A DNA stretch of 64,000 nt from Nakamurella panacisegetis (GTDB lineage: Bacteria > Actinomycetota > Actinomycetes > Mycobacteriales > Nakamurellaceae). This document shows, one piece after another, positions 35,487 through 55,795 of this stretch. Within the stretch, counting starts at the first letter, position 1; each line of letters starts with the position of its first letter. The translations under genes and the position numbers were made by a program. A model generated the notes under the pieces. It had not been told where the DNA came from, did not search any database, and worked only from the letters and a program-made list of their open reading frames with translations. The DNA lies in assembly GCF_900104535.1 (NCBI RefSeq), contig NZ_LT629710.1, positions 682,001-746,000 on the forward strand. Reading direction: 5' to 3'.

Positions 35487-36092
35487 TCATTGAGTTGCCA
35501 GTCGGCGGTCCCATCGTCGCATGAGCTGTGCTGGTGTGCGATCCGCCAGGCACAGGCGTGGTCGCGAGTTCATTTCCGCTGTTACCTGAGCGAGGTGGGC
35601 GGCGGTGATGAGCGAGAGGTCGGTGCCCTTCGGAAAGTACTGTCTCAAGAGGCCATTGGTGTTTCGTTGCTGCCTCGCTGCCAGGGTGAGTGTGGATCCG
35701 CGAAGTAGATTTTGATCTTGGTGGCCCGTTCGATCCGGTCGTGGTGAAACATCTCGTTGCCCTGGTCCCAGGTCAGTGTGCGACGCAGCGCTGGTGGCAT
35801 GCCGGCGAACACAGCGATCAGTGCGTCACCGACGGATTGGGCCGAATGTCCGTCGGGCAGTGGGACCAGGACGGTGTGTCTGGTCTTGCGTTCGACCAGT
35901 GTTGCGATCGCAGACCGTTGTCCCGCACCGATGATGAGGTCACCTTCCCAGTGACCGACCTGACCGCGACGCTCGACCACGGCCGGCCGGTTTGAGATCG
36001 ACTTCATCTTGGTCAACTGCTTCATCGCGCCTTCACGGGTTCGGCCCCTACCTCTGCGGTGGCGGTAGATACGGGCCGTACGCAGGTTGCTA
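35487..36092 (-). pseudogene. IS30-family transposase remnant, frameshifted and truncated
   Basis: Minus-strand translation gives the IS30 integrase core: ISNRPAVVERRGQVGHWEGDLIIGAG, RRTLTWDQGNEMFHHD and DPHSPWQRGSNE. One base is missing in the codon after GSNE, so the frame shifts into NTNGLLRQYFPKGTDLS and ends RRLATQ at 35487. The N-terminal half is absent: at about 36092 the sequence is broken by the IS630 element, and no IS30 sequence resumes on its far side. Non-functional. Confidence 0.88.
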
Positions 36093-37154
36093 GGGGTCTG
36101 TGATTGAAGTTGTTTTGCGGATGGCTTTGGTGAGGATCTGGTCGGCTGTTTTGGTCCAGACGAACGGGTGGGCGCGGTCGTTCCAGCCGTTGATGAAGCC
36201 GCGGATCTTGCCGGTGAGTTGGCTGACGGAGGTGAAGGTGCCGCGGTGGATGGCTTGTCGTTCGATGATGCCGAACCACACTTCGACCAGGTTCATCCAG
36301 GATGCGGAGGTGGGGGTGAAGTGGACGTGGATGCGGGGGTTGTCAGCCAGCCAGTCGCGGATTTCGATGCGTTTGTGGGTGGCGTAGTTGTCCATGACCA
36401 GGTGCAGGTCGGTGTCGGGGTAGGCCTTGGCGACTTGTTTGAGGAACCGCAGGAACTCCTGGTGGCGGTGTCGGGGTTGGCATATTCCGGTGACGGTGCC
36501 GGTGGCGATGTCCAGCGCTGCGAACAGGGTGGTGGTGCCGTGGCGGACGTAGTCGTGGGTGCGTTTGGCCGGCACGAAAGGTCGCATCGGCAGCATCGGC
36601 GCGGTCCGGTCCAGCGCCTGGATCTGCGATTTTTCGTCGACGCAGAGCACCACCGCGTTTTCTGGTGGGGCCAGGTAGAGCCCGACGACGTCGGTGACCT
36701 TGGCGATCAGTTCCGGGTCGGTGGAGAATTTGAACGTCTCGGACCGCCACGGCTGAACACCGGCCTCGCGCCAGGCCTTGGCGACGGTGCTGTTGCTGGT
36801 CTTCAGATGCTGGGCCAGCAGTCGGGAGGACCAGTGGGTCACCCCGAGCCGCTGCGGCGGCGGCCTCAACGTGGTGGCGATGATCTTCAGCCGGTCCACC
36901 TGGCGGGGCCGGCCGGAACGTTGCTCGTCGAACAGACCGTCGATCCCGTCCTTGGCATACCGCGCCCGCCACCCGGTCACCGTCGGACGGGAAACCCCGA
37001 CCCGCTCGGCGATCTCGGTGTTGGACACGCCGTCAGCGGCCAACAGCACGATCCTGGCCCGCTGCGCCAGACCGGCCCGCACCGACGAGGACCGCACCCA
37101 GCTCTCCAACTGCTTCCGCTCGCCATCCCGCAACACCAGTGCCGGTATCCGCAT
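36090..37154 (-). CDS. IS630-family transposase
   Basis: 354 residues, apparently intact. N-terminal HTH (ERVGVSRPTVTGWRARY) and a DDE catalytic core: Asp in VVLCVDEKSQIQAL, Asp in LHLVMDNYATHK, Glu in SWMNLVEVWFGII. The stop codon TAG falls exactly on the left TA junction, so the last residues are set by the flank. Start at 37154 (MRIPALVLRDGER) preferred over the upstream 37175. Confidence 0.92.
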   Translation of the reverse strand: MRIPALVLRDGERKQLESWVRSSSVRAGLAQRARIVLLAADGVSNTEIAERVGVSRPTVTGWRARYAKDGIDGLFDEQRSGRPRQVDRLKIIATTLRPPPQRLGVTHWSSRLLAQHLKTSNSTVAKAWREAGVQPWRSETFKFSTDPELIAKVTDVVGLYLAPPENAVVLCVDEKSQIQALDRTAPMLPMRPFVPAKRTHDYVRHGTTTLFAALDIATGTVTGICQPRHRHQEFLRFLKQVAKAYPDTDLHLVMDNYATHKRIEIRDWLADNPRIHVHFTPTSASWMNLVEVWFGIIERQAIHRGTFTSVSQLTGKIRGFINGWNDRAHPFVWTKTADQILTKAIRKTTSITDP

Positions 37155-37496: not shown

Positions 37497-39722
37497 ATGA
37501 CTGAGGGGTTCGACCGGGGACGGCATGCGGCGCCTGCCAACTGGGCAGATGCCTTCCCCTGGCTCCCAAGCGTGGTCTCCGATGAGCAGCCGGACGGCTG
37601 GCCGAACGTTGCGTTGGACAGTACGCCCGAACTGCGGGAGGAACGCATCAGCGCAATCGCGACATCTCTGATCTCACGGCTGTCGAATCGCGCACTGGGT
37701 GAGGTGCTGCCTACGTTGCCACCGTCGACGACCATTGCCAGCCTATCTCTTTCTACTCGCGGACAAAACATGGTCCATCGCGCCGGATACCGGACTACTG
37801 GCGACCTGGATGAACTGAGCCCCCTGGACATGCTTCAGTGGCGTGGGATGGGGGCCGGCACGCTCGATGACATCATCCAGTCGCTTGTCGACCGTTCGGC
37901 ACAACACGCTGCCCGTGGTTATGCAAGGGACATAACGGACGGGGCGCGCCGTCTGACACCAAAAGGATCCCACTGCGGGCTCGGTCAGGATGCGCCCCAG
38001 CAGACGCCGTATGCCGCTGACTTGCGAACCCTGGCGGACTGGGCTGCGTTCATTGGCGCAACGGAAGAGCCGGTCTTGGCTGGTCCGCTGCCTCCCTGGG
38101 CACCCGCCGGAGCCAAGGAGGCTCTCGATCGGCTTTTGAAGCTAGTACCGAGGGACATCGAGGATCCGAGCGGGCGGCGGGCGGATGTCGCAACGAAGCT
38201 GACCGACGCACTCGAAGGTCTCGATGACCGGCAGCTGGACATTTTGGCGCGACGCATGTTCGCGGATTACCCGGCCACGCTCGATGAGCTGGGTCGTGAA
38301 CTCGGGGTTACCCGTGAGCGCATACGTCAAATTGAGTCCAAGGAGCGCGCCCACCTCTCTAGCCTCATCGCCCCGGGCGGTGCGCTTGCCGACATTGGGG
38401 CATCCGTCCGGCATGCGATTGGACAAGTCATGCCGCTCGACGACCTTCTTGAACTCTTCCCCTCACTCGGGCAGTGGGTTGCAGGCGTCGAGCAACCTGC
38501 CTGGCGGGTGCTTGACCGGATCGACGACGGCTACGAGATCGAGAATGGCTGGTGCCTCACGCCGTCGCGGACTGCGGTTCGCGCCGACACCCAGGTCGAG
38601 TTGCAGGAGCTTGCCGACCAGTACGGCGTCGTCCGATTGGAAGCAATCACGCTGGTCAAGACGATTCACGGGGAACGCCAAGCCGAAGTCACGGCGGCTT
38701 GGCTCGACAGCTGCGGAGGCTACGTCGTCGACGGTGGCCACGTTTTCAGCCGCACATCCTCGGTTGGCGACTACGCCGCAGCGATCTTGTCGGTCACGGG
38801 CACGCCGCTCGGGTCGCAGGAAATTGTTGATCGTTTCGCCTTCGAGCGTAGCGTTGGATCGTTGCGCAACGCGATGAGCGTGGATGACCGTTTCAAAAGA
38901 ATCGACCGCGACCGCTGGGCACTCACCGAGTGGGGAATGGACGCCTACGCGGGCATTCGGTCAAAGATTCGCGAGGTAGTCACCCAGTCGGGTGGTACAG
39001 CTCAACTGGATGATCTCATCGAGTCAATCACCTCCCGTTACAGCGTGAGCGCGAGCAGCGTGGTGACGTACGCCAGTGCACCGCCGTTCGAGACTCGGGA
39101 CGGCATTGTGCGGGTCGCGGATACGAAACGAGGAGAGCGGAAGACACCTGCTCGGACCCGGCGATTGTTTCGCCGCGATGACGCCTGGGCCTACCGCCTG
39201 CGGATCTCGACGGAACACTTACGCGGCAGTGGCTCGGTCGCCCCGATCGCCGTCGCTAGCCTACTCAACCTTGAGTACGGAGAAACCCGGCTGTTAGAGA
39301 CACCCCTCGGACCCCAGACAATCGCTTGGACCGGCACTCAGCCACAGTTCGGAACCATCCGTCGTTTCCTCATGGAAGGCGATATGCAAGCCGATACTGA
39401 AGCGTTCCTCGTGATCCGAGATGACGGCACGTTCGCGTTTGAGCCCGCCCGCCATCTGATGGACAAGTCCTTAGAGGACGCCCTGACACTCGTAGGGGCC
39501 CGAGCCGGGCTTCAAGGAGACAAGGCGCGCGCCGCGCTGGCAGTGGCTGTCGGATTGCCGGCAACCACTCCCGTCACCAGTATCATCGCCGCGTATCGCG
39601 AACGAGGCGATGGCGAGATTGCGGACCTAATCACTGACATCCGCCAGGAACTTGAGGCGGGTCAGTCCTCCGAGCGCGTTGAACACAGCGCTGAGGTCGA
39701 CGACATCTTGAGCCTGCTGTGA
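37497..39722 (+). CDS. Dnd-island protein combining RNAP alpha-CTD-like and sigma region-4-like DNA-binding segments
   Basis: 741 residues, not assigned to a named family. Residues about 78-132 (IASLSLSTRGQNMVHRAGYR, then TTGDLDELSPLDML, GMGAGTLDDI) follow the helix-hairpin-helix pattern of the RNA polymerase alpha C-terminal domain. Residues about 240-290 match sigma-70 region 4, with TLDELGRELGVTRERIRQIE the recognition helix-turn-helix. Residues about 365-480 look like further winged-helix units (GSQEIVDRFAFERSVGSLRN). The rest is unassigned. It starts at ATG 37497 behind GGGGAGG and its stop overlaps the helicase gene (GTGA), so it is the first gene of a five-gene operon. It may recognise DNA or RNAP for the defence module; that is inference. 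Confidence 0.8.
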   Translation: MTEGFDRGRHAAPANWADAFPWLPSVVSDEQPDGWPNVALDSTPELREERISAIATSLISRLSNRALGEVLPTLPPSTTIASLSLSTRGQNMVHRAGYRTTGDLDELSPLDMLQWRGMGAGTLDDIIQSLVDRSAQHAARGYARDITDGARRLTPKGSHCGLGQDAPQQTPYAADLRTLADWAAFIGATEEPVLAGPLPPWAPAGAKEALDRLLKLVPRDIEDPSGRRADVATKLTDALEGLDDRQLDILARRMFADYPATLDELGRELGVTRERIRQIESKERAHLSSLIAPGGALADIGASVRHAIGQVMPLDDLLELFPSLGQWVAGVEQPAWRVLDRIDDGYEIENGWCLTPSRTAVRADTQVELQELADQYGVVRLEAITLVKTIHGERQAEVTAAWLDSCGGYVVDGGHVFSRTSSVGDYAAAILSVTGTPLGSQEIVDRFAFERSVGSLRNAMSVDDRFKRIDRDRWALTEWGMDAYAGIRSKIREVVTQSGGTAQLDDLIESITSRYSVSASSVVTYASAPPFETRDGIVRVADTKRGERKTPARTRRLFRRDDAWAYRLRISTEHLRGSGSVAPIAVASLLNLEYGETRLLETPLGPQTIAWTGTQPQFGTIRRFLMEGDMQADTEAFLVIRDDGTFAFEPARHLMDKSLEDALTLVGARAGLQGDKARAALAVAVGLPATTPVTSIIAAYRERGDGEIADLITDIRQELEAGQSSERVEHSAEVDDILSLL

Positions 39723-41851
39723 CGCCGACACCGCGCAGCCTGCGGAGTCTGCTGTTTGCCGACCGTTACCGAAGCGACAAGGAAGACGTCGTTGCCAACT
39801 TTTATGTCCCCGCATTCTCGGTCGCAACTACCTACAGCCGGGCAGTCGGCTACTTCACTTCGACCAGCCTTGCGCTGTTTGCCCGAGGTATCGCCGAATT
39901 CGCCGAGCGAGGCGGTACAATGCGGCTGGTCGCTTCCCCGCAGCTGAACGAGGATGACATTGTCGATATGGAGCGCGGCTACGACGTACGCGAGATCGTT
40001 GAGCGAGCCACACTCCGTGAACTCGATCGGGACTCACCAGACGCCGTGCTCGACGGGCTGGGGTTGCTCGGTCGGCTAATTGCTGAGGCGCGGTTAGACG
40101 TCAAGCTAGCATTCGTTGAACAAGAGGGACGCGTCGGTATCTATCATGAGAAAATCGGTATCTTCCGGGACGGGTCCGGCGACCTAATTGCGTTTACCGG
40201 TAGTAGCAACGAGACATACGGTGGCCTGATGGCCAACTTTGAGTCGGTCGAGGTGTATCGCGGCTGGGTTCCCGGTGACGGGAAGCGCGCTTTACGGATG
40301 GAGACCGACTTTCAAGCCCTATGGGCGGACCAGACGCCGCATCTGACCGTCGAGCGCTTTCCGGATGTCGCTCGTGAACGTCTGATCAACCTGGGCAACA
40401 ACCGACCGCAGCGACCACTGCCCGGCCGCGATGACGCCCTTACACCCCCCAAGACCGTCACAACAGGGCCGGCACGCCTAGCGTTGCCCGAGGGGTTGAA
40501 AGTTCGCGATTACCAGCGCCAAGCGGTCGAAGCGTGGTTCAGGCAGCAGGGTCGAGGCATCATTAAGATGGCCACCGGGACTGGCAAGACAAAGACTGCT
40601 ATGATAGCGACGACTAAGCTGGCAGAAGTGTTGCATCAGCGCGAGCAGCCCTTGGTCTTGCTTATCCTGGCGCCGCTCACCCACCTTGTTGATCAGTGGA
40701 TTACCGAGGTTGAAGGCTTTGGGGTGCGCCCCGTCGCGGTCTATGAGTCGAGCCAGAAATGGCTTGCAACTGTAGAGGAGCAGCTGGCCGCGGCTCGGAT
40801 GGGGCAGCGTTCCGTCGTGGCATTGGTCGCGACCAATGCATCGTTCGCTGGTGAAAAATTTCAATCGGTTCTTTCTAGAATTTCCTTACCGATTCTCGTC
40901 ATTGCGGACGAGGCACATAATTTAGGGTCATCCACCTATCGTTCATTACTACCATCAAACGCAACATACAGGTTGGCCCTGTCAGCTACACCCGAGCGAT
41001 GGTTCGACGACGACGGTACTGACGCACTCGTCAATTACTTCGGCCCGATTGCGTTCGAACTCGGTATCGGGAAGGCCATTGAGATGGGCGCGCTCTGCAG
41101 ATATGTGTACGTTCCACGCCTCATCGAACTTAACCACACTGAGACAACCCTCTATGCAGACCTATCGGCCCGAATTGCTCGGCTCGCTGTTGGTAATAGC
41201 CTGGACGACATCGATCCAAACTCACCACTCGGGTTTCTCCTCCGGCAACGAGCGGGCGTCCTCGGGCACGCAGCAGGGAAACTATCTATACTGACGGCTG
41301 ACCTCAAAGCACGCCGGGACGAGTGGTTCCAGTTAATTTACTGCGCCGAAGGTCGACGACCGAGCGAGCCCGCTGACCCTCCTGGTCCCAAGCAAATCGA
41401 TGAAGTAATGAACCTCGTTGGTAACGAGTTGCACTTGTCCGCCCATTCTTACGTGTCCGAGACGCCTCGCGCCGAACGGAGCGTCCTGTTGCGCCGATTT
41501 GCGTCTGGCGACAGCCTCCGTGCACTCGTTGCGATGCGTTGCCTCGACGAAGGAGTCGACATCCCTGATGCACGAGTCGGGTACCTGCTTGCGAGCAGCA
41601 GCAACCCACGCCAATTCATCCAGCGCCGCGGTCGTCTCCTGCGTCCAGCTGAAGGCAAGGAACGAGCGGAGATTATCGACTACCTGGCGGTTCCCCCAAG
41701 CGGGCTGCCAACGAACTTCAACGTCGAGCGGGCTTTGCTCGTACGCGAGCTCGAACGAGCTAACGAGTTCGGCAGGCTATCGGAAAACTATGCGACTACA
41801 CTACAAGTACTGCGCCCACTGAAAGAGCGCTACCAACTTATGAATATGTGA
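39719..41851 (+). CDS. PLD-like nuclease / SF2 helicase fusion, Dnd-system restriction-type enzyme
   Basis: 710 residues. An N-terminal phospholipase-D-type nuclease half-site lies at about 25-180: His143 and Lys145 in YHEKIGIF, then Ser/Asn in FTGSSNETYGG. A superfamily-2 helicase follows (about 260-660): Q-like KVRDYQRQAVEAW, Walker A ATGTGKT (285-291), DEAH (397-400), SAT (422-424) and motif V-VI MRCLDEGVDIPDA and QFIQRRGRLLRP. This architecture is annotated elsewhere as a DNA phosphorothioation system restriction enzyme. It probably translocates on DNA and cuts unmodified DNA with the PLD site. GTG start overlaps the preceding stop. Composition is AT-richer than the chromosome. Confidence 0.9.
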   Translation: MTPTPRSLRSLLFADRYRSDKEDVVANFYVPAFSVATTYSRAVGYFTSTSLALFARGIAEFAERGGTMRLVASPQLNEDDIVDMERGYDVREIVERATLRELDRDSPDAVLDGLGLLGRLIAEARLDVKLAFVEQEGRVGIYHEKIGIFRDGSGDLIAFTGSSNETYGGLMANFESVEVYRGWVPGDGKRALRMETDFQALWADQTPHLTVERFPDVARERLINLGNNRPQRPLPGRDDALTPPKTVTTGPARLALPEGLKVRDYQRQAVEAWFRQQGRGIIKMATGTGKTKTAMIATTKLAEVLHQREQPLVLLILAPLTHLVDQWITEVEGFGVRPVAVYESSQKWLATVEEQLAAARMGQRSVVALVATNASFAGEKFQSVLSRISLPILVIADEAHNLGSSTYRSLLPSNATYRLALSATPERWFDDDGTDALVNYFGPIAFELGIGKAIEMGALCRYVYVPRLIELNHTETTLYADLSARIARLAVGNSLDDIDPNSPLGFLLRQRAGVLGHAAGKLSILTADLKARRDEWFQLIYCAEGRRPSEPADPPGPKQIDEVMNLVGNELHLSAHSYVSETPRAERSVLLRRFASGDSLRALVAMRCLDEGVDIPDARVGYLLASSSNPRQFIQRRGRLLRPAEGKERAEIIDYLAVPPSGLPTNFNVERALLVRELERANEFGRLSENYATTLQVLRPLKERYQLMNM

Positions 41852-41890
41852 ACGTGAATAGCCGCAATCAAGATCACGGAAGGACAAGAA

Positions 41891-42052
41891 GTGAGCGGAA
41901 AGCAAACAGAGAAGCAGGTACTCGAAGATCTAAGCGACGAGCAACGGGCTCTGCTCAAGCGAGTGCTGGAGATTGAACGGGCCAAGCTTCACATTACGGC
42001 ATATGACGCGACTGACGACCTGCTCGCCGCAGTGAAGGAGATTCTCCCGTGA
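41891..42052 (+). CDS. 53-residue Dnd-operon small protein
   Basis: GTG 41891 to TGA 42052, with AAGGACAAGAA as ribosome site. The product is highly charged and predicted helical (SGKQTEKQVLEDLSDEQRAL, KRVLEIERAKLH, TDDLLAAVKEILP). Its stop overlaps the start of the SMC-like gene, so it is translationally coupled. Small proteins in this position exist in other phosphorothioation gene clusters (from memory, annotated as DNA modification system-associated small protein). It may be an adaptor or inhibitor of the helicase or ATPase; no evidence beyond position. Confidence 0.72.
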   Translation: MSGKQTEKQVLEDLSDEQRALLKRVLEIERAKLHITAYDATDDLLAAVKEILP

Positions 42053-44106
42053 AACTCCAGTCAATTACTCTAACAAACTTCCGGCAGTTCCAAGGCATCC
42101 AATCTATTAACTTGACATCAGACGCTATCAAACCGGTGACGCTACTGTTCGGGGCGAATGGCGCAGGCAAAACGACCTTACTCAACGCCTTTACTTGGGG
42201 ACTGTATGGCAGCATGTCGGACGACGTCGAGCAGCAAGACCGCATGATTACCGACACAGTGTGGCGCGGTCTGCCGATGGGTCAGTCGGCCGACGTCGCT
42301 GTTGAGATTTGTTTCGCCCACGAAGGTCAAGACTATCGCCTGCACCGCGGTGCCACGCTGCGTAAAGTAGGCGACGAACAGGGCCGGTTGTCGCCCCAGC
42401 TGCAGCTATGGACGACCCAGGCAGACGGATCCTCAGAAGCAAGTCACGCTCCACAGGAAACTGTCCTAAGCATTTTACCAGTAGGGGTGAGCCGCTTCTT
42501 CTTCTTCAATGGCGAGCGAATCGAGAACCTTGTCAAGAAGGGTGCATACGCCGAAGTTCAGAAAGACATCAAAGTACTACTGGACCTTGAGCAGGTTGAA
42601 CGCGCGATTTCGCATCTGCCGAAGGTGAATCGAAAGTTGACGGCCGAGCTTGCAAAGCACGGCGGTGCAACGTTAAGCGCGATTCAAGATGGCATCGATA
42701 AGCTAACTGATCGCCAGTCGAAGTCCAAGGACGAGCTTAAGGTCATCGAAGCAGATCTGGCAACCCTAGCCGAGGAGCGGGATGCAACCACAGAGCTGTT
42801 GCGGCAGCACGCTGAGGCGGCACCGATTCAGGCTGAACGTGATGCAGTCTCAACCGAACTCGGTGAAGCCAAGAACTCGCGGGATGCGGCAGTTGCTGAA
42901 CAGGCCACATTAGTCGCAACTAAGGGGTTCCAGGCGTTTACTGAAGAACTGGGCGACAAGACGAGAGGCGTGGCAGACAATCTGTACGAAAAAGGGGCGT
43001 TGCCAGCTCCGTTGAAACGCGAGTTCGTTGATCAATTGCTCGACGACGGTGCTTGTATATGCGGTACGCAGTTGGTTGAGCATTCCGATCCGTGGGAACA
43101 CGTCAAGGAATGGCGCCAACGAGCCGGACTTCAGGCCGTCGAGACCGCGTGGCAGCAACTCAGTGGACAGATTGCGCTACTCGCAGATGCACGTAGTGGG
43201 CTGCGAGATGCGCTGGCAATGCTTATGGGCCGAGTCCAAACCGAGCGCGACCGCGTGGCCCGACTCGAAGCCCGCAAGTCGGAGATCGATGGCAAACTTA
43301 GGGATAGCCGACTGGAGGGCGTGCAAGACTTGGAAACCAAACGCATGGACCTTGAAGGCAGAATCGCCGTCAAGAACCAGCGCAAGGGCTCACTTGAAAC
43401 CGAGCTCGCCAACATCGCCAAAGAAATCGAACACAGGACGAAGGAACGGTCACGCGCTCAGGTTACTGACGAACTGGCCTCGAAGGCTCGGTCTCGGTCG
43501 GATCTCGTGCAATACGTCAAGAAGGCGCTTGAGGACATTTTATCGATTCGGGAGGAGGATATGCGCCTTCGGCTCGATGCTGAGCTAAAAGCGGTTTTCA
43601 AGAGCATCACGCACCAGGCACACGTCCCGACGCTTAGTGAAGGGTTCGAGCTTACGCTGCACAAGGATGTCAATGGTGTCCAATTGCAAGTTCCGAAGTC
43701 GACTGGTGAAAACCAGATTCTTAGCCTGAGCTTTGTAGCGGCTGTATCCAAGATTGCCCGCGAGGTTCGCAAGGGCCGTCGCGCGGAAGGGGCGTCGGCG
43801 GCAGACGCAGGTACGTTCCCGATTGTCATGGACGCTGCGTTCGGATCTCTTGACCAGGACTATCAGGAGGCCGTCTCACGAGCGCTTGCGAAGATGGCGC
43901 CTCAGCTCGTGGTGCTGGTAAGCAAGAGTCAAGGACTCGGCAAAGTTGTCAAAGAGCTGCTTCCATACGTCAGCCACCTAGGGGTTATTGAGACCCATAC
44001 CACGGCCGAAGGAAACGTTTCTGATGACATCGAGCTGGAGGGTATGTCTTACCCGTACATCCGTTCTGCCGATACCGATCACTCCGAGCTGAAAGTAATC
44101 AAATGA
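42049..44106 (+). CDS. SMC/Rad50-like ABC ATPase of the Dnd-associated operon
   Basis: 685 residues with SMC architecture. N-terminal P-loop GANGAGKT (35-42) after TLTNFRQFQGIQSI; FFFFNGERIENLV, a motif shared with DndD; long coiled coils (about 190-290 and 370-520); a central CxC (ACICGTQL, about 335) where Rad50 has its zinc hook. The C-terminal part has signature-like ENQILSLSFVAAVSKIA and Walker B IVMDAAFGSLDQ (about 590). It is a relative of DndD but distinct from the canonical dndD at 46.4-48.4 kb. Probably an energy-driven clamp for the restriction arm. GTG start overlaps the small gene; the stop overlaps the next ATG. Confidence 0.88.
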   Translation: MKLQSITLTNFRQFQGIQSINLTSDAIKPVTLLFGANGAGKTTLLNAFTWGLYGSMSDDVEQQDRMITDTVWRGLPMGQSADVAVEICFAHEGQDYRLHRGATLRKVGDEQGRLSPQLQLWTTQADGSSEASHAPQETVLSILPVGVSRFFFFNGERIENLVKKGAYAEVQKDIKVLLDLEQVERAISHLPKVNRKLTAELAKHGGATLSAIQDGIDKLTDRQSKSKDELKVIEADLATLAEERDATTELLRQHAEAAPIQAERDAVSTELGEAKNSRDAAVAEQATLVATKGFQAFTEELGDKTRGVADNLYEKGALPAPLKREFVDQLLDDGACICGTQLVEHSDPWEHVKEWRQRAGLQAVETAWQQLSGQIALLADARSGLRDALAMLMGRVQTERDRVARLEARKSEIDGKLRDSRLEGVQDLETKRMDLEGRIAVKNQRKGSLETELANIAKEIEHRTKERSRAQVTDELASKARSRSDLVQYVKKALEDILSIREEDMRLRLDAELKAVFKSITHQAHVPTLSEGFELTLHKDVNGVQLQVPKSTGENQILSLSFVAAVSKIAREVRKGRRAEGASAADAGTFPIVMDAAFGSLDQDYQEAVSRALAKMAPQLVVLVSKSQGLGKVVKELLPYVSHLGVIETHTTAEGNVSDDIELEGMSYPYIRSADTDHSELKVIK

Positions 44107-44573
44107 CTTTGCAAAGCGAGATTCGGGCACGGCGCCCTCAGCAGCATGAAGCGCTGATGCTAGAGCTGCAGAGCGAGGGCAGGTTTCAAACCTATCGCGA
44201 CATCCTCCTGCTGGCGGCAGCGATTGGCCACCGACAAGAGCGCCGTGTTCAATTTGCTGAGTCATCCGGCGACCCGATTCGATATGAGGTGCTAACCACG
44301 CCCGGTTTCAGCGACACCTTGATCAACATGATCGCCACCAACGTCATCACTGACGATCCCGAAATTATGGATGGTGCCCGCACTGAGGAACGCATCAAGA
44401 TCTTCGAGGAATATGCGAACGGTGGACTGGAGTACATACAGGAACAGGTGAACGTGCGACACCAACCGGCCGCGCTCGTCGTCATGGGCCTGGTCACGGA
44501 AGCCCTCACAGAGACCGGGGGAATCAAGCAAGTCTCAGTCGATGAGCTGCTGAGCGGCGTCACTTGGGCGTAG
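44103..44573 (+). CDS. DNA phosphorothioation-associated protein 4-like
   Basis: 156 residues, mostly helical: EIRARRPQQHEALMLELQSE, GRFQTYRDILLLAAAIGHRQ, LINMIATNVITDDPEIM, KIFEEYANGGLEYIQEQV. The length, the middle LAAAIG and the terminal repeat-like helices agree with the family I know as dnd-associated protein 4; function unknown. ATGA overlap with the SMC-like gene. Its last 14 bases overlap the 3' end of the opposing methyltransferase gene, so the two cassettes meet tail to tail with no terminator between. Confidence 0.75.
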   Translation: MTLQSEIRARRPQQHEALMLELQSEGRFQTYRDILLLAAAIGHRQERRVQFAESSGDPIRYEVLTTPGFSDTLINMIATNVITDDPEIMDGARTEERIKIFEEYANGGLEYIQEQVNVRHQPAALVVMGLVTEALTETGGIKQVSVDELLSGVTWA

Positions 44574-46017
44574 AAGCATCGCGGACAAGTCGATGCCCGC
44601 GCACGGTGACTCCGGCTGAGGCCAGCGTAAGACGCCAGCCGTTGCGGGTGCCGATGACCTCAGGTCGTTCATACAACCCGGCGCGGACCTCGGCGCGTGT
44701 AAGGCGTTCGTAGAGCTGACGCCTTGGGTCGACTTTGCCAAGAAACTCCTCTTTACGGTGAAGCAACGGAGGATTGTCGGATGTCCGGTAGTCGCGCCAA
44801 TCAATACTAAGTCGCTTCAAATTCACTGTCATAGCACTCACGAGCGCGGGATGAGGGTCGCGATCGAACGACGGGTAGCTAAGAAAGCTGACCTGAGGTT
44901 GCTGCACTGAGAGCTTTATCAAATTTGCTTGGTCAATTGTCCCAGTCAAAATCTGCGCACAGGCTACATACACCTGAAGCACAAGTGGTAGCTCCTGGAG
45001 CGCCGACCGATGCACGTACAAGGCGGAAGGGGTTTGCTTGCCGACCTTCGAGCTCCGCGCTGATACCAAGATCATCGCAGGGTCGCCGCACGCAAGCAAC
45101 AGTCGGTCCGCCTGAATGCATGCCGAGTTGTATGTCCCAAACATTGCCTTGATATCAGTCGCTAAGCTTGCGGACAATTGACTTAAGCGCGGACGTCGGC
45201 GGAAGCGCGACATCGCAATGTAAAGGAGCAGCTCACCTCGCCGCTGGGCACTCACGCGATCCCAGTAGGTGTCCTCAGTCACTTGGCGAATCAGCCTGAT
45301 CGCCCGCGCGTTGCTCCCGAACACCTCACGAATGCCGGTTGCCTGCTGATCGACTAGCTCGCCAGCTCGTGGCTGTCGGGCGTGGTCACGCATGAAAGCC
45401 ATGAGCGGTGCTAGCAGTTCGCGATGGGCGTCGTAACTTTCATGGGGATCAATTTGGACTCTCGGCCGATTTGTGTAGACGCGCGCTGCGAGGAACTGCT
45501 CGACGTCGGTGGGATCACGAAATACGTAAAAGATGCCTGGTGCAGCAGCGATGGGCTGGACACCCAGTGTCTGCTCGATCCAACCCCTGAGTTCGGCCTG
45601 CTCGTAGAACTTTTGGAAGGTTCCAGTCCGAGTGATCAGGCCGTCGGCTAGGGGGCGTCCGGACAGATCGCGCGCGTCCCAGGTCAGACGTGACGACACG
45701 ACCAGTAGGCGGCGCGCGAGTGCCCAAGCGGCTCGCAGTGTCTCAGCACGCTCGTCTGGATGCTCAATGACGTTAACCACGTAGCCGAGGTTCACCACAT
45801 CGGAAGCGATGCGCTCGGCATGCGGGCGATGCGCAGGATCCCACCCAAGAACGCCGTACCCAATGGCCGTCAGGTTCCTGACATCATCACCCCGCCCGCA
45901 GCCGTAGTCGAACACGGTCATGCTCGGGTCGAGAACACCATCCGCTACGGCCGTAGCGATGGGCCGCGACAAGGCTGACCGCGTCATCGCGGTCCGATGT
46001 CGTGCGACTGTGGACAT
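44560..46017 (-). CDS. DNA phosphorothioation-associated putative methyltransferase
   Basis: 485 residues. SAM-binding Rossmann motif VFDYGCGRGDDVRNL (about 35-49), then LGWDPAHRP and GYVVNVIEHPDERAETLR, as in the Dnd-related methyltransferase family. The C-terminal half (about 200-485) is helical with no known catalytic motif. Encoded directly after dndE with ATGA overlap, so it is the last gene of the dndBCDE transcript. Such proteins accompany dnd loci but are not required for sulfur insertion; a second DNA modification is possible but unproven. Confidence 0.85.
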   Translation of the reverse strand: MSTVARHRTAMTRSALSRPIATAVADGVLDPSMTVFDYGCGRGDDVRNLTAIGYGVLGWDPAHRPHAERIASDVVNLGYVVNVIEHPDERAETLRAAWALARRLLVVSSRLTWDARDLSGRPLADGLITRTGTFQKFYEQAELRGWIEQTLGVQPIAAAPGIFYVFRDPTDVEQFLAARVYTNRPRVQIDPHESYDAHRELLAPLMAFMRDHARQPRAGELVDQQATGIREVFGSNARAIRLIRQVTEDTYWDRVSAQRRGELLLYIAMSRFRRRPRLSQLSASLATDIKAMFGTYNSACIQADRLLLACGDPAMILVSARSSKVGKQTPSALYVHRSALQELPLVLQVYVACAQILTGTIDQANLIKLSVQQPQVSFLSYPSFDRDPHPALVSAMTVNLKRLSIDWRDYRTSDNPPLLHRKEEFLGKVDPRRQLYERLTRAEVRAGLYERPEVIGTRNGWRLTLASAGVTVRGHRLVRDASTPK

Positions 46018-46413: not shown

Positions 46414-48384
46414 CTACTCCCAAAAATAGCCGGGCTGTACGGCTGTCGCGTTGGTCTTTGGATTGAACTCCAGCCGGTAGGCACGACCGATGTGCGGACG
46501 TAGCCGGTCGTACGCAGACCGATCGATTTCGGTGTCGGTAGACAGCAGAATGACCTGGTGACTGGCGTACGGAAAGTACCGATCTAGGAGATGCTCCCGA
46601 TGGGAGCCGTCGAGACGACCGAGCGGTGTGTCGATGATGACCGGTAGTGGCTGGCCGGCGGCGCGGGCAAGCCCCCACAACAGGGCGACAGCCAGAAGTT
46701 GTCGCTCGCCGGCGGATAGCTCCTGAGCGGCAAGTGGACGCCCGTCGAGTCCTGTCAGCTCGACAGTGTGGGAATCAGCGTCGATGGCCACAGCGGTGAT
46801 GAGCTTGTCCTTACGCAGCAGTCGACCCAGTGCTTCCAGGATCAGCTCTGAGATTCGATCAAGGTGACGTCGCGTTGCGGCGGCACGCAGGCCTTCGAGC
46901 GTCACGCGCACTCGGTCAACGTGTTCAATGAGCCGACGCCCGTCATCGGCTGCCATGTTGGCATGCGCTGCCTTATCGAGGGCGCCTTCGTAAGCCGAAT
47001 CGGCTCGAGCCCGATCAGTGCGCAGCGACGTCAAGCGTTCGCTGGCATGCTCCAGCGATGATTCAGCGCGGATCGTTTCCGCCGCGGCTTCGTCACGCTG
47101 GATGCGAAGGGGCACCAGCGTCTCAGGGTCTGGCATTGCTACTAGCACTCGCTCCGCTTGATCGAGTTCGCTGCGCGTCATAATCCGGCGTTCTAGGAGC
47201 CCTTCGAGCCGCCGCCGGGCGGAAGGCAGAACCCTGAGCAGAGCGTCGGTCCCGCCTGCATCGCGGAGCCCGGATACTTGTTTGGCTTGTGCAAACTTTG
47301 CCCGCTCATCCCGGTCGGCTGTCAAAAATTGCTCGATGGACCGAAGCGTCACCGCATTCACTGCGTCAGATGCTAGCTGCGCAAGCACGGCAGCGTCGCG
47401 CTTCTCTACGACGTCCACGACAAGGAGTTCACGGTGGGCAGCCGATTCGCGGTGCACCTGTTCAGACAGACCTCGCAACAACTCGGTGGTTTGCAGGAGC
47501 GGCGCCGCTTCGCTTACCTCGCTTCGTATTTCGTCTTCGATCCTGGCCAGCTCAGTTCGAAGCAGCGTCACGGTGGTCTCAGCTGAGTCGCGTTGATCTA
47601 GCAAGTCTCCACCGGCCGACCGGTAACGCTCAGCCAGTTCGAACAGGCGCTTGTTGGACCGCTCAAGCTCGACTCGGACGGTGGCTACGGCATCTGCCGC
47701 AGCCTCCTCGGCCTGCCGAAGAGAGGTAACCGTCCTTTGCCGCTCTTGCACGGTCTCGCGCAGCACATCCGGTACCTGTTGCGACCGATGGCGACGGCGA
47801 AGTACGGCAAGGTCGGTTGTCAGGCGCTCGACGAGATCGAGCCCCAGAAGGGCTGCGAGCGCCGATCCTAATACCTGACGGGACCGCTCCATGTCGGCCA
47901 AGGCCTCGATCTGCTCGCCATCGAAGAAGAAGAGGCCAGCGATACCGCGCGGGAGGAAGGTCTCAACATGTTCGCTCCAGGTAGAGGTGAGCGCGTGATC
48001 GTGTCGACCGTCAACCATCACTAAGAGGATCTCGCGGATGTATGCGCCGGTACTTCGCCAGCTACGCCTAATCCAGAACCGACGTTCTTCACCCTCCTGA
48101 TGTGCATGGAAGGTCAGCTCAATCGCCGCCCCCTCCGTCTCCGGCACACCGCGGTGGATCAGGCTCCGCAAGTAGCTGTCATAGCTGCCCGAACGGCGCC
48201 CTGAAGGCTGAGCGAGAGCGCCGTACAGGGCTACATGGATTGCCTCGAGCACAGTAGTCTTGCCCGCTCCGTTGAGGCCGCCTATGAGAACGACCGGTTT
48301 TTTGGTGGACGGCGGCGTCAACGGTATCGAGTGCCGCCCCGCAAAGGTGCCGACATTGTGCAGGACCAGTTCATCCAGGATCAC
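46414..48384 (-). CDS. dndD: DNA sulfur modification protein DndD (SMC-like ATPase)
   Basis: 656 residues. Walker A GLNGAGKT (36-43) after HNVGTFAGRHSIPL; GIAGLFFFDGEQIEALAD; long central coiled coils rich in Glu/Arg; signature LSAGERQLLAVALLWGLA and Walker B PVIIDTPLGRLDG near the C-terminus. DndD supplies ATPase activity, possibly by nicking or opening DNA for sulfur insertion. GTG start overlaps the dndC stop. Canonical size. Confidence 0.95.
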   Translation of the reverse strand: MILDELVLHNVGTFAGRHSIPLTPPSTKKPVVLIGGLNGAGKTTVLEAIHVALYGALAQPSGRRSGSYDSYLRSLIHRGVPETEGAAIELTFHAHQEGEERRFWIRRSWRSTGAYIREILLVMVDGRHDHALTSTWSEHVETFLPRGIAGLFFFDGEQIEALADMERSRQVLGSALAALLGLDLVERLTTDLAVLRRRHRSQQVPDVLRETVQERQRTVTSLRQAEEAAADAVATVRVELERSNKRLFELAERYRSAGGDLLDQRDSAETTVTLLRTELARIEDEIRSEVSEAAPLLQTTELLRGLSEQVHRESAAHRELLVVDVVEKRDAAVLAQLASDAVNAVTLRSIEQFLTADRDERAKFAQAKQVSGLRDAGGTDALLRVLPSARRRLEGLLERRIMTRSELDQAERVLVAMPDPETLVPLRIQRDEAAAETIRAESSLEHASERLTSLRTDRARADSAYEGALDKAAHANMAADDGRRLIEHVDRVRVTLEGLRAAATRRHLDRISELILEALGRLLRKDKLITAVAIDADSHTVELTGLDGRPLAAQELSAGERQLLAVALLWGLARAAGQPLPVIIDTPLGRLDGSHREHLLDRYFPYASHQVILLSTDTEIDRSAYDRLRPHIGRAYRLEFNPKTNATAVQPGYFWE

Positions 48385-52396: not shown

Positions 52397-53008
52397 GGGG
52401 AGTTATCGGCGAAGATGGAGAGCTGAAGGACGACGTCACCGTAGTCATGGACCCGTTTCACGTCGTGAGGTTGGCCGGACAGAGCCTGGAGCTATGTCGC
52501 CGCCGCGTGCACCAGCAGAGCCTCGGTCACCGTGGCCGCGCCGGGGATCCGCTGTATTCGGCGCGCCGCACCCGATCGACCGGCGCGGATCTGCTCACCG
52601 AGAACCAGCGGCGACGGATCTCGGCTCTGTTCGCCGACGACCAGCATCTGGAGGTGGAGGCGACCTGGGGTGTCTACCAGGCGATGGTCGGTGCCTACCG
52701 TGACCCCGACCGATCCGCCGGCAAGACCAAGATGAAGCAGCTCATCGACACCCTGGCCAGCGGCGTTCCCGCCGCTCTGAGCGAGGTCCGGACTCTCGGA
52801 CGGACGTTGAAGCAACGGGCCGCCGACGTCCTGGCCTACTTCGACCGGCCGGGCACCAGCAACGGACCGACCGAGGCGATCAACGGGCGTCTGGAGCACC
52901 TCCGCGGGTCGGCTCTGGGCTCAGGAACCTGACCAACTACGTCGCCAGGTCGCTGTTGGAAGCCGGCGGGTTCAGACCAGGACTACTGGCAGGTCCCCGT
53001 TTTGTAGG
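52397..53008 (+). pseudogene. ISL3-family transposase, C-terminal fragment with frameshift
   Basis: From about 52429 the frame reads DDVTVVMDPFHVVRLAGQSL and continues through LLTENQRRRISALFADDQHL and PTEAINGRLEHLRGSALG, as in ISL3-family C-terminal halves. A one-base change near 52920 shifts the frame, after which LTNYVARSLLEAGGFRPG completes the expected end. The N-terminal and part of the catalytic region are absent. Abuts an IS3 element on its right side. Confidence 0.85.
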
Positions 53009-53018
53009 CCGGGCAGTG

Positions 53019-53876
53019 CTAGAGCCTTGGGGTTGATGGTTCGATCTCACAGCCCACCGGTTGGTGGGTGTGGGTGCACTGGGCACCGTACTCGGCGGGT
53101 GTGAGGTAGCCCAGCGCCGAGTGGCGGTGCCGATGGTTGTGGTCTTCCTTGAAGTCGCCGATGACCACTCGGGCTTCTCGGAGGTTCGTCCAGTGGTTGC
53201 GGTTCAGGCATTCCCTTCGGAGTCGGTTGTTGAATGATTCGATGTGCCCGTTGTTCCAGGGCGTGCCGGGCGGGATGTAGATCAGGCCGACCTTGTTGCG
53301 GCAAAAGTCCTGCAGTGCATCGGAGATGAACTCGGGGCCGTTGTCCATGCGCAGCACCTGGGGTGGGCCGCCGCACTCGTCGAACGCCTGCTGCAGGTGT
53401 GTGACCAGGCGGTCGGCGGTGATCGACCGCTCGACGATGTGCAGCATCGACTGCCGGGTGTGTTCGTCGATCATCGACGCGATCTTGATGGCCTTCCCGT
53501 CGACGGTCGAGTCGTATTGGAAGTCGATGGCCCACACCACCTTCGGCGCGTCCGCCGCGATCTGCGGGACGCTGTTGATGCCGACGCGTTTGCGGGGGTG
53601 GTAGATCCTGACCTGCAGTCCTTCGTCCATCCAGAGGCGGTGGACCTTTTTCTTGTTCACCTGCCGGCCCTCGTCGTGCCGCAACGCAGCCCAGGCTCGC
53701 CGGAACCCGTGCAGCGGGTGCTGGGTGGCGTAGCGGCGCAGCCAGGCCCGCAGGTCAGCGTCCGGATCCGCCGGTGTCTGAGCGATCGGGCGGCGCTGGT
53801 AGGTGGACCGATTGAGCCCAACAGCTCTGCACGCCAACCGCTGCGACAGTTTCATTGTGTCGATGAGCATGTCCAC
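53019..53876 (-). CDS. IS3-family transposase OrfB (DDE integrase)
   Basis: 285 residues with the rve core: VVWAIDFQYDSTVDG (first Asp), LRMDNGPEFISDAL (second Asp), NNGHIESFNNRLRRECLN (Glu). N-terminal HTH_21 region LHGFRRAWAALRHDEGRQ. Normally made as an OrfA-OrfB fusion by -1 frameshift; an A-rich slippery stretch (GGGAAAATTC on the coding strand) lies at the end of orfA. Appears intact. Confidence 0.93.
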   Translation of the reverse strand: MDMLIDTMKLSQRLACRAVGLNRSTYQRRPIAQTPADPDADLRAWLRRYATQHPLHGFRRAWAALRHDEGRQVNKKKVHRLWMDEGLQVRIYHPRKRVGINSVPQIAADAPKVVWAIDFQYDSTVDGKAIKIASMIDEHTRQSMLHIVERSITADRLVTHLQQAFDECGGPPQVLRMDNGPEFISDALQDFCRNKVGLIYIPPGTPWNNGHIESFNNRLRRECLNRNHWTNLREARVVIGDFKEDHNHRHRHSALGYLTPAEYGAQCTHTHQPVGCEIEPSTPRL

Positions 53877-53899
53877 CGCGCGGCGTGCCGCTGCCGGGC

Positions 53900-54181
53900 T
53901 CAGAATTTTCCCTTCGCCACCTCCCGCAAGGCGTCCTTCTCCAGCTCCGCCTCGGCCAGCAGCCGCTTCAGTCGGCTGTTCTGCTCTCGAAGGTCCTTGA
54001 GCTCTTTCGCGGAGTCGCCGTCCAACCCGCCGTACTGCCGGCGCCAGTTGTACAACGTCGGCGCCGACACCTCCAGCTCCGCGGCGACCTCTTCCATCGT
54101 CCTCCCCGCAGCGGTCAACTCATCCGCCCGGCGCAGCTTGCGAACAATGTCCTCCGCCGAATGACGCTTCCTACCAGCCAT
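53900..54181 (-). CDS. IS3-family transposase OrfA (HTH)
   Basis: 93 residues. Helix-turn-helix AEDIVRKLRRADELTAAG... with LEVSAPTLYNWRRQYGG, then a leucine-zipper-like coiled coil LKDLREQNSRLKRLLAEAELEKD used for multimerisation. Start at 54181 (MAGRKRHSAED); longer starts at 54190 or 54217 possible. Confidence 0.9.
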   Translation of the reverse strand: MAGRKRHSAEDIVRKLRRADELTAAGRTMEEVAAELEVSAPTLYNWRRQYGGLDGDSAKELKDLREQNSRLKRLLAEAELEKDALREVAKGKF

Positions 54182-54232
54182 CCCGATCATGTCCTTCCTG
54201 CCCCTCACCTGGGGCAACAGGACTCTAAATCA

Positions 54233-54420
54233 ACTCGGCCTCATCCACCGGGGACACGCCACTACGCCGTCGATTGTGATGAGCCGAACCGGCCGCGGCC
54301 ACCTTATGATTGCCGGGTTGCATGTCTGACAACATCAGTGCTGCGACTCAACGTAACGGGTGCCGTACAGCATCTCGTGTCGAACCGATTGCGACCCCTG
54401 GGACGTGAGGCGGGATGAAC
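54233..54420. other. Spacer between two IS3 elements
   Basis: About 190 bp. No gene, RNA or repeat recognised. Confidence 0.4.
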
Positions 54421-54441
54421 CACCCCGGCATGTCCGGACAC

Positions 54442-55371
54442 TTACGGGTTTGAGAACGCAGCGGGTTGCTGGGCTCTGATTTGAGCGTAGTGGGCCTGCT
54501 CGAGCTCCACCGGTGGGAGGTCGCCGTTGTGCTCATAGAGGCGGCGGTGGTTGAACCAGTCGACCCATTCCAGGGTGGCGACTTCGACCTGCTCGACGGT
54601 CCGCCACGGGCCGCGGGGCTTGATCAGCTCGGTCTTGTAGAGCCCGTTGATCGTCTCGGCCAGAGCATTGTCGAAACTATCCCCGGTGCGACCAACGGAG
54701 GCGTCGATGCCCGCGTCGGCCAGCCGCTCGGTGAACGCCACTGACGTGTATTGAGATCCGCGGTCGTTGTGGTGAATCAACCCCGAAAGGTCCTGCACCC
54801 CTTCACGTTGCCGGGTCCAGATGGCATGCTCGATTGCGTCCAAGACCAGCTGTGCGGTCATCGTCGCCGCCGATCGCCAACCCACGATCCGACGGGAGTA
54901 GGCATCGATCACGAACGCCACGTAGACCCACCCGGACCACGTCGAAACATACGTGAAGTCGGCCACCCACAAGCGATCCGGCGACCCCGGGTCGAAATGA
55001 CGATCCACCAGATCACTTGCCCGTTTCGCTTGCGGGTCGGCGATAGTGGTGCGTTTAACCTTGCCCCGACGAGCACCGACCAGACCGAGCCGGCGCATCA
55101 GCCGCTCCACCGTGCACCGGGCCACCGCGGTGCCCTCCCGGTTCAGCGTCAACCACACCTTCCGCGCCCCGTAGACGCCGTAGTTCTCCGCATGCACCGC
55201 ACTGACCTGCGCGGACAGCGCCTCGTCCCGGACAGCGCGGGCGGAGGGCTGCTGGTGGGTGCGGTCGTAGTAGGTGGACGACGCGATCTTGCAGCCGTGC
55301 TCGGTGAGCACCCGGCAGATCGTCCCGACGCCGTATTCCGCCTTGTGCTGATCGATGTAGCTGATGATCAC
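54442..55371 (-). CDS. IS3-family transposase OrfB
   Basis: 309 residues, integrase core with LWVADFTYVSTWSGWVYVAF (Asp), IHHNDRGSQYTSVAF (Asp) and SFDNALAETINGLYKTELI (Glu). N-terminal HTH_21 segment YGVYGARKVWLTLNREG. Its ATG overlaps the orfA stop (ATGA), compatible with coupling or programmed frameshifting. Intact. Confidence 0.95.
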   Translation of the reverse strand: MIISYIDQHKAEYGVGTICRVLTEHGCKIASSTYYDRTHQQPSARAVRDEALSAQVSAVHAENYGVYGARKVWLTLNREGTAVARCTVERLMRRLGLVGARRGKVKRTTIADPQAKRASDLVDRHFDPGSPDRLWVADFTYVSTWSGWVYVAFVIDAYSRRIVGWRSAATMTAQLVLDAIEHAIWTRQREGVQDLSGLIHHNDRGSQYTSVAFTERLADAGIDASVGRTGDSFDNALAETINGLYKTELIKPRGPWRTVEQVEVATLEWVDWFNHRRLYEHNGDLPPVELEQAHYAQIRAQQPAAFSNP

Positions 55372-55691
55372 TTCTGTCGGCGGTCGAGCTCCGCCGCGAA
55401 AAAAGTTGACGCCGACTTCAATATCTCGTTGGCCCGCTTCAACTCTCGGTTCTCCGCCCGCAACTTCCGCAGCTCCTCCGCCGCCTCGGTCGACACCCCC
55501 GGCCGTTTACCGGCATCGACCTCGGCGCGGCGGACCCAGTTCTGCACCGTCTGCGCAGTCCCGATCCCCAACTTCGCCGCGACCGACTCCACCGCCGCCC
55601 ACTCCGACCCATGATCGGACCGGATCTCCGCCACCATCCGCACCGCCCGGTCCTTCAACTCGGCCGGGTACCGCTTCGACGTACTCGCCAT
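55368..55691 (-). CDS. IS3-family transposase OrfA
   Basis: 107 residues: KRYPAELKDRAVRMVAEIRSDHG, HTH GTAQTVQNWVRRAEVDAG, and coiled coil LRKLRAENRELKRANEILKSAS ending FFAAELDRRQ. Classical IS3-group OrfA. Confidence 0.94.
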   Translation of the reverse strand: MASTSKRYPAELKDRAVRMVAEIRSDHGSEWAAVESVAAKLGIGTAQTVQNWVRRAEVDAGKRPGVSTEAAEELRKLRAENRELKRANEILKSASTFFAAELDRRQK

Positions 55692-55795
55692 GACTCCATC
55701 TTTCCTAACAAGAGGAGTGTCCGGACATGCCGGGGTGACTCACCAGATGGAAAGCACTTACTACGAACATCCGCTATCCGAGTTCAGATACGCGG

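What the first reader, a model, noticed from the sequence alone, without database searches (positions are those of the whole stretch)
37497..44573. Non-canonical five-gene partner operon of a Dnd phosphorothioation system
The island has complete dndA and dndBCDE but no DndF, DndG or DndH gene. Facing them is an operon of five genes joined by 4-base overlaps or close spacing: alpha-CTD/sigma-4-like protein, PLD-helicase, 53-aa protein, SMC-like ATPase, Dnd-associated protein 4. The PLD-helicase type is known elsewhere as a Dnd-linked restriction enzyme, so this operon is probably the restriction or antiviral arm. From memory the archaeal PbeABCD module is the closest described parallel, but I cannot confirm orthology.
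Basis: partly seen in the sequence, partly recalled or inferred. Interest (0 to 1): 0.85.

Follow-up and report, generated by a model that had tools for sequence, protein, structure and literature searches.

The report
Five-gene PbeABCD variant with sigma-4/alpha-CTD subunit
Next to a complete DNA-sulfur (phosphorothioate) marking operon, this bacterium carries the known antiviral module PbeABCD plus one extra gene, fixed in front of it, whose product combines DNA-binding pieces normally found in RNA polymerase and its sigma factors; that extra subunit appears undescribed and could be how the defence finds its target DNA.

Summary
Genes 2-5 of the operon (39719-44573) are a textbook PbeABCD module in the same order: PLD/HKD-SF2 helicase (PADLOC PbeA, 837 bits), 53-aa small protein, CxC zinc-hook ABC ATPase (PbeC, 860 bits) and Dnd-associated protein 4. 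It converges on dndBCDE plus a putative methyltransferase, with dndA beyond. DptF, DptG and DptH are absent from the whole 5.01-Mb genome, and positive controls rang. New here is gene 1 (37497-39722, 741 aa): alpha-CTD-like HhH, sigma region 4 without regions 2/3, a HARE-HTH-like winged helix (below Pfam cut-off) and a probable B3-like DNA-binding domain. It sits directly before pbeA with a 4-nt overlap in a monophyletic PbeC clade (5 of 6 actinobacterial loci found through PbeC alone), and its divergence tracks PbeA/C/D rather than DndD. Sigma-4 proteins also sit in pbe operons of three other PbeC lineages (Rhodobacterales, Aurantiacibacter, Lactiplantibacillus). I infer that gene 1 is the DNA-reading subunit of this Pbe variant. 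Novelty: new variant of a known kind. No activity is demonstrated.

The parts
37497..39722 (+). gene 1, 741 aa: alpha-CTD-like HhH (~77-130), sigma-70 region 4 (~234-290), HARE-HTH-like winged helix (~421-485), further winged helix (~486-545), B3-like domain (~553-652), helical C-terminus; proposed DNA-reading subunit
   Evidence: Pfam Sigma70_r4 2.9e-11 and RNA_pol_A_CTD 1.9e-7, both over cut-off, scored on the 752-aa open frame; HARE-HTH only sub-threshold in homologues; B3-like by AF2 + Foldseek with weak E-values
39719..41851 (+). pbeA: PLD/HKD nuclease + SF2 helicase, 710 aa
   Evidence: PADLOC PbeA 837 bits; TIGR04095 538 bits, below its 600 cut-off; HEK...GSSN, MATGTGKT, DEAH motifs
41891..42052 (+). 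pbeB-like small protein, 53 aa
   Evidence: position and size; conserved 71-85% in three other loci and mean 76% pairwise; no family model
42049..44106 (+). pbeC: CxC-clade ABC ATPase, 685 aa
   Evidence: PADLOC PbeC 860 bits; GANGAGKT, VMDAAFGSLD, single CIC at residue 336
44103..44573 (+). pbeD: Dnd-associated protein 4, 156 aa
   Evidence: TIGR04062 78.4 bits over cut-off 74.25
44560..46017 (-). Dnd-associated putative methyltransferase, last gene of the facing dnd operon
   Evidence: TIGR04096 631 bits
46017..46409 (-). dndE
   Evidence: TIGR03184 and PF08870; start chosen by gene caller
46414..48384 (-). dndD
   Evidence: TIGR03185 568 bits
48381..49922 (-). dndC
   Evidence: TIGR03183 657 bits
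49919..51076 (-). dndB
   Evidence: TIGR03233 503 bits
51174..52370 (+). dndA cysteine desulfurase
   Evidence: TIGR03235 497 bits over cut-off
36090..37154 (-). IS630-family transposase at the left edge of the block (start per gene caller)
   Evidence: NF033545 276 bits
52447..52932 (+). truncated ISL3-family transposase at the right edge
   Evidence: NF033550 122 bits, model positions 205-356 only

Best explanation
This is an actinobacterial PbeABCD module, the non-DndFGH partner of a DndABCDE phosphorothioation (PT) system, in a five-gene variant whose first gene encodes a dedicated DNA-binding subunit. Proposed working: DndA-E mark host DNA with PT (inferred from the complete gene set). 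Gene 1 binds DNA through its HhH, sigma-4, winged-helix and B3-like domains and, with the PbeC-PbeD complex, loads the PbeA motor-nuclease on DNA that lacks PT; PbeB is a small partner or regulator. PbeA, which has no target-recognition domain of its own, then translocates and cuts, nicks or blocks the invader. Shown: gene content, order, coupling, families, absence of DndFGH, and fixed association of gene 1 with this PbeC clade. Inferred: PT-dependence, complex formation, DNA reading by gene 1, and the antiviral effect.
For: PbeA and PbeC hits, TIGR04062, order and 4-nt overlaps conserved in six loci. Loci found by PbeC alone with a score above 840 bits: 5 of 6 outside the window have full gene 1 directly before pbeA, and the sixth (G198) has a 402-aa gene in the same slot matching gene 1's HARE-like region. 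PbeC tree: gene-1 loci form one clade, support 1.0. Pairwise identities of gene 1 correlate with PbeA/C/D (r 0.74-0.84) but not with DndD (r 0.06). Other pbe loci have other DNA-associated proteins just before pbeA: MTaX1 (L112, L113), Lsr2-like (L069), 1017-1082-aa sigma-4 proteins. In SauUSI a PLD-SF2 chain carries its own recognition domain, and in CglI/NgoAVII a B3 domain does this work (PMC7913695, PMC5737866); PbeA ends about 60 residues after the helicase and has none. DptF/G/H absent with controls ringing.
Against: No activity or complex was tested. Sigma-4 plus alpha-CTD are promoter-binding modules, so a regulator remains plausible. B3 and HARE assignments are weak: Foldseek E 0.02-0.24, HARE below gathering score. 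Most Pbe systems work without gene 1 (the archaeal one has only four genes, PMC6459918). Xiong et al. saw no cleavage of viral DNA by PbeABCD. The HARE-like and B3-like parts are the most conserved parts of gene 1 (72% and 66%), which does not look like a variable sequence-specificity domain.
Confidence: 0.55

Rival explanations
1. Gene 1 is a transcription regulator of the pbe (or pbe-dnd) genes: its alpha-CTD-like and sigma-4-like domains bind promoters or RNA polymerase and control expression, while PbeABCD does all the work.
For: Sigma-4 and alpha-CTD are promoter-recognition modules; gene 1 is first in the operon; the alpha-CTD-sigma-4 core is what the protein in another Pbe lineage (Aurantiacibacter) shares most clearly with gene 1; a complete sigma-70 factor lies divergent to another pbe locus (L110).
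Against: No sigma region 2 or 3, so it cannot be a conventional sigma factor; no similarity was obvious by eye in the upstream regions of nine orthologues (not formally tested); 741-1082 aa and translational coupling to pbeA are unusual for a local regulator; in Aurantiacibacter the gene is last in the operon.
Confidence: 0.27
2. Gene 1 is part of the effector: it seizes promoters or RNA polymerase on invading DNA and blocks transcription or replication, so cleavage by PbeA is not required.
For: Xiong et al. 2019 report replication block without viral DNA cleavage (PMC6459918); in two L. plantarum plasmids the sigma-4 protein is coupled to a PbeA of only 457-458 aa that lacks the PLD nuclease domain, whereas a L. 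plantarum locus without the sigma-4 gene keeps it.
Against: The window PbeA keeps an intact HKD motif, conserved in seven loci; Rakesh et al. argue for cleavage (PMC10853773).
Confidence: 0.12
3. Gene 1 is a neighbour without functional connection, and the finding is just an ordinary PbeABCD next to dnd.
For: PbeABCD works with four genes in archaea (PMC6459918); gene-1 homologues also occur away from Pbe, e.g. next to GmrSD or nuo genes.
Against: Conserved 4-nt overlap, 5 of 6 PbeC-found loci, co-divergence, and sigma-4 proteins in three other Pbe lineages.
Confidence: 0.05
4. The operon is a degenerate DndFGH or an unrelated cluster.
For: None found.
Against: PADLOC PbeA/PbeC scores and whole-genome absence of DptF/G/H with ringing controls.
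Confidence: 0.01

Closest known systems
PbeABCD with DndCDEA (Xiong et al. 2019, PMC6459918) = CxC ABC-ATPase/HKD-SF2 system (Rakesh et al. 2024, PMC10853773)
   Same: PbeA, small PbeB, CxC PbeC and PbeD in the same order, beside PT modification genes
   Different: Extra first gene with alpha-CTD, sigma-4, HARE-like and B3-like domains; bacterial host; dndB and a TIGR04096 methyltransferase present
SauUSI (type IV, PMC7913695)
   Same: PLD nuclease fused to SF2 helicase; phmmer hit to the structure 7clg E 2.7e-7 (that 7clg is SauUSI is from memory)
   Different: SauUSI carries its own coupler and SRA recognition domain; PbeA does not
CglI/NgoAVII (PMC5737866)
   Same: PLD nuclease, SF2 motor and a B3-like DNA-binding domain in one system
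   Different: There the B3 domain is fused to the nuclease; here the probable B3 domain is in gene 1 and the nuclease is fused to the motor; homology of the B3 domains not shown
PglW of BREX and MzaA
   Same: Alpha-CTD-like and/or sigma-4 segment inside a large defence protein (PglW 31 bits, MzaA 16 bits; PMC12839542 describes an alpha-CTD-like domain and three wHTH modules in PglW)
   Different: No kinase, NERD or AAA domain was found in gene 1; similarity is limited to those short segments
DndFGH (DptFGH)
   Same: Partner module of a dnd operon
   Different: No DptF, DptG or DptH in the genome

Membership tests
PbeABCD | PbeA: PLD/HKD nuclease fused to SF2 helicase | tested here: met
   PADLOC PbeA 837 bits, motifs intact
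PbeABCD | PbeC: CxC-clade ABC ATPase with zinc hook | tested here: met
   PADLOC PbeC 860 bits; single CxC at 336, Walker A/B; separate from DndD in the tree
PbeABCD | PbeB: small protein between pbeA and pbeC | tested here: met
   53 aa, conserved position and sequence in relatives; no model exists for it
PbeABCD | PbeD: Dnd-associated protein 4, last gene | tested here: met
   TIGR04062 over cut-off
PbeABCD | PbeD is a clade-2 DndE with two RHH domains (Rakesh et al.) | tested here: inconclusive
   hhalign of PbeD against DndE alignments not significant; shallow alignments
PbeABCD | PT-dependent antiviral activity needing all four genes | not testable with these tools
   needs plating assays
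DndFGH | DptF, DptG and DptH present | tested here: not met
   whole genome negative, two control plasmids positive
sigma-70 factor (gene 1) | regions 2 and 4 | tested here: not met
   only region 4 found
HARE-HTH proteins (gene 1) | HARE-HTH domain over Pfam gathering score | tested here: inconclusive
   consistent sub-threshold hits in homologues, E 0.0085-0.06
B3-like DNA-binding domain (gene 1) | B3 pseudobarrel fold | tested here: inconclusive
   the first 20 Foldseek hits are 18 chains of plant B3-type DNA-binding domains and two of the LlaJI.R1 N-terminal domain (6c5d), but E 0.02-0.24, on a model of mean pLDDT 64
PglW/MzaA | full-length match over curated cut-off | tested here: not met
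   22-35 bits against cut-offs of 990 and 800

The most novel reading that the evidence does not exclude
Proteins combining alpha-CTD-like HhH and sigma-4 domains are a general, repeatedly recruited fifth component of Pbe (CxC-ABC/HKD) defence that targets the motor-nuclease to DNA through promoter-like or modification-dependent contacts, in some lineages making the PbeA nuclease domain dispensable; this would link phosphorothioate immunity to transcription machinery.
Probability: 0.25. Interest if true: 0.8.

Novelty: new variant of a known kind. Interest (0 to 1): 0.52.

Why it matters
How PbeABCD recognises invading DNA, and whether it cuts it, is disputed in the two papers that treat it (PMC6459918, PMC10853773). 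A conserved fifth subunit made of DNA-reading domains, coupled to pbeA, gives a concrete candidate for target recognition and a testable handle. Its sigma-4/alpha-CTD make-up, and the presence of sigma-4 proteins in three other Pbe lineages, suggest that this defence can use transcription-type DNA contacts. PADLOC and NCBIfam have no model that identifies gene 1, so automatic annotation would miss it.

Tried and rejected
DndFGH hypothesis: rejected (the earlier silent searches were inconclusive until controls were added). DndE-PbeD homology by hhalign: no signal. PDB sequence profile for PbeD or for gene 1's C-terminal half: nothing useful. Relatives of gene 1 in viral contigs: none. Full-length AF2 of gene 1 with four sequences: mean pLDDT 50, too poor except the C-terminus, so residues 415-741 were folded separately. 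The 424-aa 'gene-1 hit' at L110 is a complete sigma-70 factor, not gene 1. Orthology of the 1017-1082-aa proteins with gene 1 beyond the sigma-4 (and weakly alpha-CTD) part could not be shown. The 2012 HARE-HTH paper was not held; its content is known to me from memory only.

Full report
Observation. Three of the four junctions are 4-nt overlaps and the fourth is a 39-nt gap, a pattern reproduced in five other loci. The dnd genes are complete: DndB, DndC, DndD, DndE and DndA all score above NCBIfam cut-offs, and the operon ends in a TIGR04096 methyltransferase-like gene that overlaps the last of the five genes end to end by 14 nt. No DptF, DptG or DptH exists in the 5.01-Mb single-contig genome; the same three searches hit two plasmids with annotated dptFGH at E 1e-90 or better.

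What the operon is. Genes 2-5 are PbeABCD. Gene 2 matches PADLOC PbeA with 837 bits and gene 4 PbeC with 860 bits. Gene 5 passes the cut-off of TIGR04062, Dnd-associated protein 4. Gene 3 is a 53-aa protein in the PbeB position, conserved in relatives. Gene 4 carries one CxC motif at residue 336, with Walker A and B motifs, as expected for the CxC-clade ABC ATPase that Rakesh et al. identify with PbeC (PMC10853773). Order and families match the archaeal system of Xiong et al. (PMC6459918).

Gene 1. It is not part of the described PbeABCD. In the 752-aa open frame Pfam finds sigma-70 region 4 (E 2.9e-11) and an RNA polymerase alpha-CTD-like domain (1.9e-7), both over cut-off, and no sigma region 2 or 3. 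Homologues give consistent sub-threshold HARE-HTH hits over the stretch corresponding to residues 421-485. An AlphaFold model of residues 415-741 is moderately confident (mean 64, mostly 55-90 over the C-terminal part); in Foldseek the first 20 hits are 18 chains of plant B3-type DNA-binding domains and two chains of the N-terminal domain of LlaJI.R1, but the E-values are only 0.02-0.24. I therefore call the B3-like domain probable, not shown.

Distribution. A first scan brought three relatives, all with the same five-gene operon running into a TIGR04096-type methyltransferase gene and dndE. To avoid that bias I searched 395 genomes of the class and 399 of the order with PbeC alone. Outside the window six loci score above 840 bits; five have full-length gene 1 directly before pbeA and the sixth has a 402-aa gene there that matches gene 1's HARE-like region twice. 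More distant actinobacterial Pbe loci have no gene 1 in that place but an MTaX1 protein (two), an Lsr2-like protein (one) or neither. The PbeC tree puts all gene-1 loci in one clade with support 1.0. Gene 1 diverges faster than its neighbours (mean pairwise identity 54% against 68-76% for PbeA-D), yet its pairwise identities follow PbeA, PbeC and PbeD (r 0.74-0.84) and not DndD (r 0.06); these 15 pairs from six loci are not independent, so this is descriptive.

Other lineages. In plasmids, proteins annotated as sigma factor-like HTH are encoded in pbe operons of Ruegeria and Pontibrevibacter (1026 and 1017 aa, directly before pbeA), Aurantiacibacter (437 aa, last in the operon) and two Lactiplantibacillus plantarum plasmids (1082 and 1080 aa, before pbeA). 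The Aurantiacibacter protein matches the gene-1 family over both alpha-CTD and sigma-4 (E 6.5e-23); the Rhodobacteral ones over sigma-4, with a sub-threshold alpha-CTD hit; the Lactiplantibacillus ones over sigma-4. These loci fall in three further places of the PbeC tree, interleaved with loci without such a gene, so either recruitment or loss happened repeatedly; deep nodes are only moderately supported. In both Lactiplantibacillus loci the coupled PbeA has only the helicase (457-458 aa, no HxK...GSxN), whereas a L. plantarum locus without the sigma-4 gene has the nuclease domain.

Mechanism. Known PLD-SF2 restriction enzymes need a recognition module: an SRA domain in SauUSI, a B3 domain in CglI/NgoAVII (PMC7913695, PMC5737866). 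PbeA matches XPB helicases and the entry 7clg, which I take to be SauUSI, but it ends about 60 residues after helicase motif VI and has no such module. Gene 1, coupled to pbeA and built of DNA-binding domains, is the natural candidate. PT marking of self and attack on unmarked DNA is inferred from the archaeal system. A regulator role is the main rival. Whether the outcome is cleavage or a replication block is open: Xiong et al. saw no cleavage, Rakesh et al. argue for it, and the window PbeA retains its HKD motif.

Context. The block is a mobile-looking insert. Sequence homologous to a congener (G455) runs to window position 34.4 kb; then follow an IS630 transposase, the pbe-dnd block at 56-62% G+C against 65-70% to the left, and ISL3, IS3 and IS256 transposases; 0 of 16 other genomes of the genus have PbeC at E 1e-20.

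Verdict. Ordinary in four of five genes, new in the fifth. I found no paper in the held library that describes a sigma-4/alpha-CTD protein with PbeABCD (one search is weak because its first term was a truncated word searched as a whole word). The library lacks most subscription journals, so prior description cannot be excluded.

Noticed in passing
window 61507-62823: DGQHR-domain protein with weak DndB similarity (TIGR03187 113 bits), outside the dnd operon and beyond several transposases.
   Followed up: no
L085:3018-7636 and L118:2759-7374: L. plantarum plasmids with a 1080-1082-aa sigma-4 protein coupled to a helicase-only PbeA lacking the PLD nuclease domain, followed by small protein, PbeC-like ATPase and a PbeD-sized protein.
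   Followed up: partly
L117:4926-11928: Aurantiacibacter Pbe operon with a DNA methyltransferase first and a 437-aa alpha-CTD/sigma-4 protein last.
   Followed up: partly
L066:8123-11980: Gene-1 orthologue fused to about 550 N-terminal residues with four tandem zinc-loop (degenerate His-Me/HNH-like) repeats.
   Followed up: partly
L071, L114, L089, L116: Pbe genes beside what look like SspABCD genes (cysteine desulfurase, DUF4007, large ATPase, PAPS-reductase; Ssp assignment from memory) instead of dndCDE; in L071 a distant gene-1 homologue converges on them.
   Followed up: partly
L112:12306-12914, L113:11696-12277: MTaX1 (PF20296) proteins encoded directly before distant pbeA genes.
   Followed up: partly
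L110:12968-14242: A complete set of sigma-70 regions (1.2-4) in a 424-aa gene divergent from a pbe operon.
   Followed up: no
L072:7303-12025, L079:7979-11046: Gene-1 relatives outside Pbe loci next to restriction genes: directly before a GmrSD-type enzyme, and overlapping a REase-ARP nuclease gene.
   Followed up: partly
L073, L074: Gene-1 relatives located beside nuo (complex I) genes (Pfam-checked in L073, same gene-length pattern in L074).
   Followed up: no
window 53000-55750: Two multi-copy insertion sequences of this genome (further copies at several other places of the chromosome).
   Followed up: partly
L002:11176-13899: Two extra genes (575 and 329 aa) between pbeD and the facing methyltransferase gene.
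   Followed up: no
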